A stretch of DNA of 41,457 nt from NCBI GenBank assembly GCA_022768375.1, contig JALEMG010000004.1, positions 1-41,457 on the forward strand, read 5' to 3'. Origin of the DNA: Lentisphaeria bacterium. Lineage in GTDB: Bacteria > Verrucomicrobiota > Lentisphaeria > Victivallales > Victivallaceae. Below the pieces are notes generated by a model, which saw nothing but the letters and a program-made list of their open reading frames with translations, searched no databases and was not told where the DNA came from. Positions 1 to 32,760 of this stretch are shown piece after piece. The translations under genes were made by a program, and so were the position numbers. Each line of letters opens with the position of its first letter. Positions within the stretch are counted from its first letter, which is position 1.

Positions 1-545
1 ACCTGAATGACGTCCACTTCGTCGAAAAATTCCAACTGGGAGAGGTCCATGATCTCGGTCACGATCGGCAGTCCGGAGGCTTTTTTCGCTTCCAGCAGCA
101 GCCGGATGCCCTCCTCGCGCAGCCCCTGAAACGCATAGGGGCTGGTGCGGGGTTTGAACGCCCCGCCCCGCAGCAGTTTGGCCCCCGAAGCCTTGACGCT
201 CTGCGCGATGGCGACGATCTGCTCCTCGCTCTCCACCGAACACGGCCCGGCGATCACCGTCAGCGTCCCCCCGCCGATGACGGCATCCCCCACCCGGATC
301 TCCGTGTCCAGCGGATGAAATTTGCGGTTCGCGTTTTTGAACGGCTCCTGCACCCGCTTGACGTCCTCCACGATCTCCATCTGGAGCAGCAGTCCGATGT
401 CGATTTTCGCCGTGTCGCCCACCAGTCCGAGAATCGTCTGATGCGCTCCGTGCGTGATGTGGGGCGTCACGCCCTGCGCCGCGATCCACGCCAGCAGGTT
501 ATCCAACTGCCGCTGTTCGGGATTTTCCTTGAGAATGACTACCAT
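1..545 (-). CDS. aroF: 3-deoxy-7-phosphoheptulonate (DAHP) synthase, partial (3' end outside window)
   Basis: Catalyses condensation of phosphoenolpyruvate and erythrose 4-phosphate to DAHP, the first step of the shikimate pathway, in the cytoplasm. The visible 181 residues start MVVILKENPEQRQLDNLLAW, a small N-terminal ferredoxin-like regulatory region as in the AroF/AroA(I-beta) type. The catalytic barrel follows with the hallmark stretches TVIAGPCSVESEEQ and GGAFKPRTSPYAFQG, which hold PEP-binding residues. The start is the ATG complementary to 543-545, preceded by a GGGAGG ribosome binding site. The gene runs off the left edge, so its C-terminus and downstream partners are unseen. Upstream lies a complete amino-acid attenuator (leader peptide 662-751, terminator 593-633), so expression is probably tuned to charged tRNA-Phe. 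The family is clear; the isozyme letter is a convention. Confidence 0.93.
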   Translation of the reverse strand, partial: MVVILKENPEQRQLDNLLAWIAAQGVTPHITHGAHQTILGLVGDTAKIDIGLLLQMEIVEDVKRVQEPFKNANRKFHPLDTEIRVGDAVIGGGTLTVIAGPCSVESEEQIVAIAQSVKASGAKLLRGGAFKPRTSPYAFQGLREEGIRLLLEAKKASGLPIVTEIMDLSQLEFFDEVDVIQ

Positions 546-592: not shown

Positions 593-633
593 ACACAAAA
601 GGCCCCGCGAACGACGATGCCGTCTGCGGGGCC
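593..633 (-). terminator. Intrinsic terminator of the aroF attenuator
   Basis: Read on the minus strand, GGCCCCGC (633-626) pairs perfectly with GCGGGGCC (608-601). An inner GACG/CGTC stem with a GCAT loop lies inside, and TTTTGTGT follows. It sits between the leader peptide and the aroF start, so it is the 3:4 terminator of an attenuator. The 5' arm can instead pair with the GC-rich segment 685-697 inside the leader ORF. Confidence 0.85.
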
Positions 634-661
634 GTGGAATGATCCGTCCTGCCGCCGTCGG

Positions 662-751
662 TCATGAAATCACGACGCCGGACACCCCGCCCCGCCGAAC
701 GTACCGGCGGGCGAAACTGAAACTAAATCGGATGCGGGCGAACGATTTCAT
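662..751 (-). CDS. Phe-rich leader peptide of the aroF attenuator (29 aa)
   Basis: A 29-codon ORF starts at the ATG complementary to 749-751, with an AGGA ribosome binding site 7-8 nt upstream, and ends at TGA (662-664). It begins MKSFARIRFSFSFARRY: four Phe codons within codons 4-13 (TTC, TTT, TTC, TTC) and a Tyr at 17. Immediately after the last Phe codon lies RNA segment 1 (713-704, CGCCCGCCGG). It can pair with segment 2 (697-685, CGGCGGGGCGGGG), which in turn can pair with segment 3 (633-626), the 5' arm of the terminator. A ribosome stalled at the Phe codons would cover segment 1, free 2 to pair with 3, and prevent termination. This is the classic attenuation layout of pheA and trp. The peptide itself probably has no function. 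Confidence 0.8.
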   Translation of the reverse strand: MKSFARIRFSFSFARRYVRRGGVSGVVIS

Positions 752-782
752 TTTTTTTCCTGATCCTTTCAATCCTGCAACT

Positions 783-811
783 AATATACACCGCGCCCGG
801 CGGCTTTGCAA
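783..811 (-). promoter_or_regulatory. Promoter of the aroF leader transcript
   Basis: On the minus strand TTGCAA (811-806), 17 bp, TATATT (788-783). The predicted start lies about 25 nt upstream of the leader-peptide ATG. It uses the same TATATT -10 as most promoters in this window. Confidence 0.75.
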
Positions 812-32684: not shown

Positions 32685-32760
32685 GCGCCCGTAGCTCAGT
32701 CGGTAGAGCAAGTGACTCTTAATCACTGGGTCCACGGTTCGAGTCCGTGCGGGCGCACCA
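32685..32760 (+). tRNA. tRNA-Lys (anticodon CTT)
   Basis: 76 nt with encoded CCA. The acceptor stem GCGCCCG pairs with CGGGCGC. The D arm has GCTCAGTCGGTAGAGC, the anticodon stem-loop is GTGA-CTCTTAA-TCAC with anticodon CTT, and the T arm is CACGG-TTCGAGT-CCGTG. All stems are intact. A T-run (32761-32769) follows and may end the transcript. Confidence 0.97.

What the first reader, a model, noticed from the sequence alone, without database searches (positions are those of the whole stretch)
593..811. Phenylalanine-leader attenuator on a DAHP synthase gene
Promoter, 29-residue leader peptide with four Phe codons in ten positions, and RNA segments that form 1:2, 2:3 (antiterminator, 7 bp GCGGGGC/GCCCCGC) or 3:4 (terminator) pairs are all present and in the right order. 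Segment 1 starts right after the last Phe codon. Attenuation by Phe is known for pheA and pheST, but for an aroF-type gene in a PVC bacterium I know of no description.
Basis: partly seen in the sequence, partly recalled or inferred. Interest (0 to 1): 0.85.

Follow-up and report, generated by a model that had tools for sequence, protein, structure and literature searches.

The report
Phenylalanine-sensing attenuator before DAHP synthase
Upstream of the first gene of aromatic amino acid synthesis, a bacterium of a little-studied phylum carries a small phenylalanine-rich decoy gene and an RNA switch that should turn the gene down when phenylalanine is plentiful; the switch looks like textbook attenuators and is shared by about thirty relatives.

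Summary
The same layout was read in 34 aroF upstream regions of 31 genomes of the order; 24 of 59 aroF starts read show none. 1:2 plus 3:4 covary beyond all 500 shuffles; the antiterminator is well supported in 14 close leaders, weaker in 32. A covariance model over 137 genomes gave 31 matches at E<=5.1e-4, all just upstream of aroF (14 of them built the model). pheA follows directly in 21 of 30 readable cases. A ribosome-blocking calculation gives the expected switch, less cleanly in the window than in some relatives. Response to Phe is inferred. It is a new member of a known kind: C. glutamicum aroR-aroF is reported as Phe-responsive. New here: the phylum, segment 2 inside the ORF, and leader codons that range from Phe-mostly through Phe+Tyr to one Tyr-mostly case. 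Clostridial aroF genes also carry Phe/Tyr-rich leaders with terminators, but my antiterminator test was negative there.

The parts
783..811 (-). Promoter-like site TTGCAA (811-806), 17 bp spacer, TATATT (788-783)
   Evidence: best site scores >=9 in 29 of 34 leaders against 12.6% of 680 shuffled regions; not experimentally mapped
759..769 (-). Shine-Dalgarno-like AAAGGATCAGG before the leader ATG
   Evidence: sequence
662..751 (-). Leader ORF, 29 codons, Phe codons 4 (742-740), 9 (727-725), 11 (721-719), 13 (715-713); Tyr codon 17 (703-701); stop TGA 664-662
   Evidence: Phe/Tyr-rich ORF in the same place in 33 other leaders, chosen by eye
704..713 (-). Segment 1 (inner arm), pairs with 698-688
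   Evidence: MFE of the ORF; homologous hairpin covaries in relatives, (helices 4 and 5, helix 4)
730..740 (-). Outer arm of segment 1 (735-730 and 740-737), pairs with 687-682 and 679-676
   Evidence: homologous outer helix: 3 of 7 pairs changed on both sides (helix 2), 6 of 7 (helix 2; alignment fitted to the structure)
676..698 (-). Segment 2, inside the ORF: pairs with segment 1, or (GCGGGGC 695-689) with segment 3
621..633 (-). Segment 3 = 5' arm of the terminator; GCCCCGC 632-626 also pairs with 695-689
601..613 (-). Segment 4 = 3' arm of the intrinsic terminator
   Evidence: covariation of the homologous stem
593..600 (-). U tract TTTTGTGT after the terminator
   Evidence: 6 T of 8, less than in most relatives shown
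1..545 (-). aroF, DAHP synthase (ferredoxin-like N-domain + DAHP_synth_1), cut off by the contig end
   Evidence: Pfam PF18152 and PF00793; best NCBIfam PRK08673 (below its cut-off, protein truncated)

Best explanation
A ribosome-mediated transcription attenuator of the trp/phe type that senses charged tRNA-Phe and controls aroF, and probably aroF-pheA. Transcription starts near 776. If Phe-tRNA is scarce the ribosome stalls at Phe codons 9-13, covers or displaces segment 1, and segment 2 pairs with segment 3; the terminator cannot form and aroF is transcribed. If Phe-tRNA is plentiful the ribosome runs to the stop codon at 664-662 and covers segment 2; segment 3 pairs with segment 4 and transcription ends near 595. 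With no translation, 1:2 forms and termination also follows. Shown by sequence and comparison: ORF, Phe codons, covarying alternative helices, terminator, position before aroF, operon in relatives. Inferred: start site, translation, stalling, response to Phe, the join of this aroF copy to pheA.
For: Anatomy. 34 leaders with Phe/Tyr-rich ORF and terminator: 198 Phe, 105 Tyr, 2 Trp among 1023 residues (the leaders were chosen for Phe/Tyr, so this total is no independent test). Covariation: 1:2 + 3:4 on 14 leaders 88.9% paired, 0 of 500 shuffles reach any of the five measures; on 32 leaders likewise 0 of 500 (alignment fitted to that structure). 2:3 on 14 leaders: percent paired and score 0 of 500, pairs changed on both sides 1 of 500; on 32 leaders score 10 of 500, percent paired 6 of 500. 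Duplex of segment 3 with the ORF: mean z -4.4 against dinucleotide shuffles and -2.2 against random synonymous codons, n=34. Ribosome-blocking model: probability that segment 3 is paired upstream before segment 4 exists is 0.73 (first Phe/Tyr codon of the cluster), 0.82 (middle), 0.23 (stop), n=34; in the window 0.77-0.78 at codons 9, 11, 13 and 0.19 at the stop. Position: 31 of 31 model matches at E<=5.1e-4 in 137 genomes lie just upstream of aroF; 14 of them built the model, 17 did not. pheA follows directly in 21 of 30 readable cases.
Against: No expression data. The U tract is short. At equilibrium the full RNA prefers the terminator in the window at every codon (P(2:3)=0.00), so the switch must be kinetic. 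In the window the modelled probability is as high at codons 2-8 as at the Phe codons and stays 0.51-0.69 at codons 18-29, falling to 0.19 only at the stop; in L012 it falls right after the Phe cluster. Stalling at the last Phe/Tyr codon does not relieve termination in the model (0.19, n=34). Single-leader tests miss 5%: duplex, dinucleotide 3 of 34 (L014, L022, L037), synonymous 7 of 34; ORF fold 5 and 7 of 34. For 2:3, the number of pair types is not above shuffles (148 of 500, 258 of 500), and sliding the partner by +1 gives as many or more changed pairs, cells or types on some measures, though lower percent paired and score. Outer 2:3 helices are poorly kept over 32 leaders (45-62% paired). 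pheA downstream of the window's copy is inferred by synteny. 24 of 59 aroF starts read in the order, some in congeners (G006, G009, G018, G026, G028), show no leader.
Confidence: 0.9

Rival explanations
1. Same attenuator, but it senses Tyr as well as Phe, because DAHP synthase feeds both.
For: Tyr is the second commonest residue in the 34 leaders (105 of 1023); the leaders of the 19 genomes with one aroF copy hold 3-5 Tyr codons each.
Against: The window's leader has 1 Tyr (codon 17) and 4 Phe; stalling at codon 17 gives P=0.55 against 0.77-0.78 at Phe codons 9-13. Its genome has a second, leaderless aroF. In C. glutamicum Tyr availability has no effect according to PMC11802643 (passages).
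Confidence: 0.15
2. Translation-independent RNA switch (T-box or riboswitch) with a chance ORF.
For: Terminator and alternative pairing are what such switches also show; aromatic genes are under T-boxes in some bacteria (recalled).
Against: No Rfam family at gathering score in the window except a tRNA; ORF and Phe/Tyr codons recur in 34 leaders; the synonymous-codon test shows pairing on top of a kept peptide.
Confidence: 0.03
3. The leader peptide or plain terminator acts otherwise (peptide product in trans, or a constitutive partial terminator).
For: Short upstream ORFs can have other roles; a leader peptide acting in trans is reported for Sinorhizobium peTrpL (PMC7298713, search listing only).
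Against: Does not account for mutually exclusive covarying helices or for codons of the pathway's end product.
Confidence: 0.03

Closest known systems
Corynebacterium glutamicum aroR-aroF attenuator (Neshat et al. 2014, known to me only through PMC11802643, passages; aroF leader also in PMC4046766, passages)
   Same: Leader peptide with Phe-Tyr-Phe before a DAHP synthase gene; Phe limitation raises transcription
   Different: Other phylum; only Phe-Tyr-Phe is named as control codons; homology of the RNA not tested here; no pheA operon mentioned in what I read
Escherichia coli pheL-pheA and pheST attenuators (details recalled; both mentioned in PMC11802643)
   Same: Phe-rich leader peptide, terminator/antiterminator choice by ribosome position; pheA follows aroF in most relatives here
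   Different: aroF comes first; the best partner of segment 3 lies within the leader ORF in 34 of 34; many relatives add Tyr codons; no Rfam match
uORFC-13-1 motif of Acholeplasma (PMC8632094, passages)
   Same: uORF with Phe and terminator before aroF, attenuation proposed
   Different: Described with at least one Phe; other phylum; sequences not compared here
Escherichia coli trpL attenuator (recalled)
   Same: Three-way choice 1:2, 2:3, 3:4
   Different: Amino acid and gene differ; there segment 2 follows the stop codon (recalled)

Membership tests
Ribosome-mediated (leader-peptide) transcription attenuator | Short translatable ORF with SD and several codons of the pathway's end product | tested here: met
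   translation itself not shown
Ribosome-mediated (leader-peptide) transcription attenuator | Intrinsic terminator between ORF and structural gene | tested here: met
   covariation of the stem; short U tract in the window
Ribosome-mediated (leader-peptide) transcription attenuator | Antiterminator exclusive with terminator and with a 1:2 helix, conserved with compensating changes | tested here: met
   core helix well kept, outer parts and some counts weak
Ribosome-mediated (leader-peptide) transcription attenuator | Stalling at control codons frees segment 2, completion covers it | tested here: inconclusive
   folding calculation with blocked nucleotides agrees, but in the window the fall comes only at the stop codon; no experiment
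Ribosome-mediated (leader-peptide) transcription attenuator | Read-through rises when the amino acid is limiting | not testable with these tools
   needs an experiment
Rfam families, Phe leader included (that Rfam holds such a family is recalled) | Match at gathering score | tested here: not met
   one match in the window, a tRNA
T-box riboswitch | Match to a T-box model at gathering score | tested here: not met
   (window); also none in 20 clostridial aroF loci
C. glutamicum aroR-aroF attenuator | Phe-responsive leader before a DAHP synthase gene | tested here: inconclusive
   leader and target present; response not testable; the sequences were not compared
DAHP synthase with ferredoxin-like N-domain | PF18152 + PF00793 in one protein | tested here: met

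The most novel reading that the evidence does not exclude
The window's element belongs to a widespread family of aromatic-leader attenuators on aroF in these Lentisphaerota, with Clostridia using a related or parallel version. Within the family the control codons have been re-tuned between Phe-mostly, Phe+Tyr and, in one case, Tyr-mostly, following which amino acids depend on that DAHP synthase copy. Leader codons would thus do what separately regulated isozymes do in E. coli, and a Tyr-specific classical attenuator would exist.
Probability: 0.45. Interest if true: 0.68.

Novelty: new member of a known kind. Interest (0 to 1): 0.5.

Why it matters
It carries classical leader-peptide attenuation into a phylum for which my paper searches showed no report (listings seen in part), on the entry enzyme of aromatic synthesis. 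Because aroF copies in neighbouring genomes differ in leader codons, it offers a natural series for testing how codon content and placement set the amino acid that a leader senses. It also points to many Phe/Tyr-rich leaders before clostridial aroF genes.

Tried and rejected
Chance ORF plus terminator: rejected by shuffles and conservation. T-box or other catalogued RNA: no match. First idea that segment 1 lies wholly before the Phe codons: dropped; duplex predictions and alignment show an inner hairpin over or after the last Phe codons and an outer helix that starts before most of them. The MAFFT alignment of the first 26 leaders (A1) misaligned the leader types; covariation was counted on 14 close leaders (A2) and on a model-fitted set of 32 (A4), in which some leader types are still poorly aligned over 2:3. 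The 32 leave out L025 and L037 of the 34, which the model does not find. L222 (same place as L036) has only a partial leader, is not found by the model and is not among the 34. The 49-row alignment A3 held spurious matches and was not used for counting.

Weak model matches (9 of 40, E 0.0026-0.0074) were read: none is upstream of aroF; two lie before what I read as an acetolactate synthase gene with a Val/Ile-rich frame; the rest look like plain terminators. An ilv leader in the window's own genome was looked for at the one TPP-enzyme hit; I saw no leader in the stretch before it.

Clostridial and other aroF loci: leader ORF + SD + terminator in 50 of 73 against 0 of 296 control windows drawn from the same loci, which are mostly coding; other residue pairs in the same 73 regions reach at most 10. 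The antiterminator test was negative there (mean z 0.14, -0.07, n=53 after dropping 20 of 73), so I do not claim the same switch for them.

Tyr content against number of aroF copies: one-copy genomes mean 3.6 (n=19), two-copy 2.5 (n=15), rank-sum p=0.015. The sharper contrast (10 leaders of two-copy genomes, mean 1.4, p=7e-6) drops five leaders chosen after seeing the data (L019, L040, L048, L202, L221) and ignores kinship. L048 speaks against it: it precedes pheA in a two-copy genome and has 4 Tyr. It is a lead, not a test. Copy numbers come from draft genomes.

Full report
WHAT IS THERE. The window is contig C58 of a 2.25-Mb draft genome in 64 contigs. On its minus strand a DAHP synthase gene starts at 545 and runs off the contig at 1; the 181 residues present match PF18152 and PF00793. 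Upstream, in order: TTGCAA-17-TATATT at 811-783, an AAAGGATCAGG stretch, a 29-codon ORF at 751-662, and a terminator at 633-601 followed by TTTTGTGT, its last arm ending 55 nt before the aroF ATG. The ORF reads MKSFARIRFSFSFARRYVRRGGVSGVVIS. The antiterminator core is GCGGGGC (695-689) with GCCCCGC (632-626); a second register (690-684) is also possible. The inner 1:2 hairpin is 713-704 with 698-688 and continues into outer pairs.

CHANCE. For the window alone, the duplex between ORF and segment 3 is matched by 3 of 200 dinucleotide shuffles and by 0 of 200 ORFs with synonymous codons drawn at random from the leaders' pool; the fold of the ORF by 1 of 200 and 0 of 200.

RELATIVES. The protein search over 60 relatives and over 137 genomes of the order gave aroF orthologues. 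I read the upstream region of 59 aroF starts of at least 50% identity: 34 have a Phe/Tyr-rich leader ORF and terminator, chosen by eye, in 31 genomes (listed); one (L222) has a partial one; 24 show none (one of these, L024, is probably an assembly join). The leaders vary strongly, for example MKNFNSIRFSFFSSFAFYFRKRGGMLVAVK, MSLFIGKFFNFISFYYYFRGGVCRAMI, MNKFYYGSFYFTGFAFSKRSRSLRAVRFH. Compensating changes can be read by eye: in L018 segment 2 GCAGGGC faces GCCCTGC; in L035 GGGGCTTGC faces GCAAGCTCC where L026 has GGGGTTTGC and GCAAACTCC; in the inner hairpin L023 has CCGCTT/AAGCGG and L027 CCGTTT/AAACGG.

COVARIATION COUNTS. On 14 close leaders aligned by MAFFT, 1:2 + 3:4 is 88.9% paired with 12 of 31 pairs changed on both sides, 0 of 500 shuffles on all five measures. 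2:3 is 82.4% paired with 6 of 18 such pairs: 0 of 500 for percent paired and score, 1 of 500 for that count, but 148 of 500 for pair types. On 32 leaders fitted to the model, 1:2 + 3:4 is 87.3% paired, 22 of 31 pairs changed on both sides, 0 of 500 (this alignment leans towards the structure). 2:3, not part of the model, is 68.0% paired (6 of 500), score 10 of 500, pair types 258 of 500; its core helix is 85.6% paired, the outer ones 45-62%. The shuffles do not keep kinship. Slid partners are lower in percent paired and in score, but a slide of +1 equals or exceeds 2:3 on some counts of changed pairs, cells or types.

PER-LEADER TESTS. Over the 34 leaders the duplex of segment 3 with the ORF has mean z -4.4 (dinucleotide) and -2.2 (synonymous), the ORF fold -2.7 and -2.5. 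More than 10 of 200 shuffles are as good for 3, 7, 5 and 7 of 34 leaders respectively.

POSITION. Model R1, built from the 14, was run over 137 genomes of the order: 34 have a match at E<=0.01, 40 matches in all. All 31 at E<=5.1e-4 lie just upstream of aroF (29; the other two are L040 and L048). 14 of the 31 are the building sequences; the other 17 are not. None of the 9 weaker ones is upstream of aroF. Over 387 genomes drawn from the phylum, with strict filters, 16 have a match at E<=1e-4, all in the same order. In 42 loci taken as leaderless or distant (L036 with its partial leader among them) the model gave nothing at E<=0.01 and two matches near E 0.1.

TARGET. Of the 34, four run into a contig end (the window's own among them). 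Of the other 30, 21 are followed directly by a chorismate mutase-prephenate dehydratase gene (pheA; in L017 the match lacks the mutase part), three by aroA (one of them, L040, with a chorismate mutase-like stretch first), three by what I read as aroK-aroC, and three by none of these directly (Pfam for pheA of G014 and of this genome). In the window's genome pheA sits at one end of contig C48 beside the C-terminal part of an aroF; the other end has an aroF end followed by what I read as aroA and aroB. A second aroF, without leader, starts on C30. In G014 the leader copy precedes pheA and the leaderless copy precedes aroA, so I infer that the window's copy runs into pheA.

HOW IT SHOULD WORK. 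I blocked the nucleotides under a ribosome at each codon and folded the free RNA downstream. Before segment 4 exists, segment 3 is paired upstream with mean probability 0.73 at the first Phe/Tyr codon of the cluster, 0.82 at the middle one, 0.19 at the last and 0.23 at the stop (n=34). In the window it is 0.77-0.78 at codons 9, 11 and 13, 0.55 at the Tyr codon 17, 0.51-0.69 at codons 18-29 and 0.19 at the stop; in L012 it falls to 0.01-0.24 from codon 19 on. With the whole RNA at equilibrium the terminator wins in the window, as in a kinetic switch. The best partner of the terminator's 5' arm is centred inside the ORF in 34 of 34, median 31 nt before the ORF end, with z under -2 in 28. Stalling and response to Phe are inferred.

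PHE AND TYR. The 34 leaders hold 198 Phe and 105 Tyr in 1023 residues. One-copy genomes have 3-5 Tyr per leader (19 of 19). Of 15 leaders in two-copy genomes, ten have 1-2 (the window 1), three before aroA have 3-5, L048 before pheA has 4, and L221 (contig end) has 6 Tyr and 1 Phe. The grouping was made after seeing the data and ignores kinship.

WIDER. The best 80 of 576 relatives kept in a scan of species genomes are mostly titled Clostridia or other Bacillota, some Lentisphaerae. In a tree of 139 sequences the Lentisphaerota genes lie among or beside clostridial ones, far from seven other aroF genes of the same order; transfer between the groups is likely, its direction not resolved. 50 of 73 such upstream regions hold a Phe/Tyr-rich ORF with SD and terminator, against 0 of 296 control windows (mostly coding) and at most 10 for other residue pairs. 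The antiterminator test is negative there, and no Rfam family was found in 20 of them.

KNOWN. Phe attenuation of a DAHP synthase gene is described for C. glutamicum (PMC11802643, passages; PMC4046766, passages) and proposed for Acholeplasma (PMC8632094, passages). A Shewanella study lists aroF with an attenuator sensing Tyr-tRNA after a 1980 E. coli paper (PMC2659441, passages). A 2005 study of Actinobacteria and a 2010 terminator survey do not mention aroF (PMC1262725 and PMC2965389, term searches in the main text). For Lentisphaerae and Victivallales no listed paper holds the name together with leader peptide and attenuator or attenuation; of papers with two of the three terms I saw 20 of 149 and 8 of 398. 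Wider searches. Most subscription papers are not in that library, so an earlier report may exist.

VERDICT. Real, well supported, ordinary in principle: a new member of a known kind in a new phylum, with an interesting spread of codon content among relatives.

Noticed in passing
L077-L155 (clostridial and other aroF loci), in the 300 nt upstream of aroF: 50 of 73 upstream regions hold a Phe/Tyr-rich leader ORF with SD and a terminator (0 of 296 control windows), for example Oscillibacter valericigenes L100 MSTFTFAAEYRYFSFTYYFGKAYFGLAENECV. No significant antiterminator by my test and no Rfam family in the 20 scanned.
   Followed up: partly
L221 (G127:C183), upstream of a second aroF: Tyr-dominated leader MKRFVNNNYCAYDYAYYYRMRAVACCCANQI (6 Tyr, 1 Phe) with a strong 2:3 pairing (z -5.1, 0 of 200): a candidate Tyr attenuator.
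   Followed up: partly
L190 (G017:C49:43389-43499) and L191 (G127:C170:13649-13758): Val/Ile-rich reading frame ending in ..IIISVIIITPPGMA / ..IIISVIIITPPGTV plus terminator just before what reads as an acetolactate synthase gene: a candidate ilv attenuator in the same bacteria.
   Followed up: no
G000 contigs C58, C30 and both ends of C48: The two aroF copies break the assembly at the same place, so their middle or 3' parts are probably near-identical although the N-terminal 181 residues are 78% identical: possible gene conversion.
   Followed up: no
L024 (G025:C71): Leaderless aroF start followed by a pheA 93% identical to that of G014; probably an assembly join of the two copies.
   Followed up: no
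L200, L203, L204, L213-L220 (11 genomes of one genus of family f4): aroF orthologues in which I recognised no leader; a promoter-like site lies shortly before the gene.
   Followed up: partly
window 32685-32760 +: tRNA-Lys (anticodon ctt), the only tRNA found in the window.
   Followed up: no
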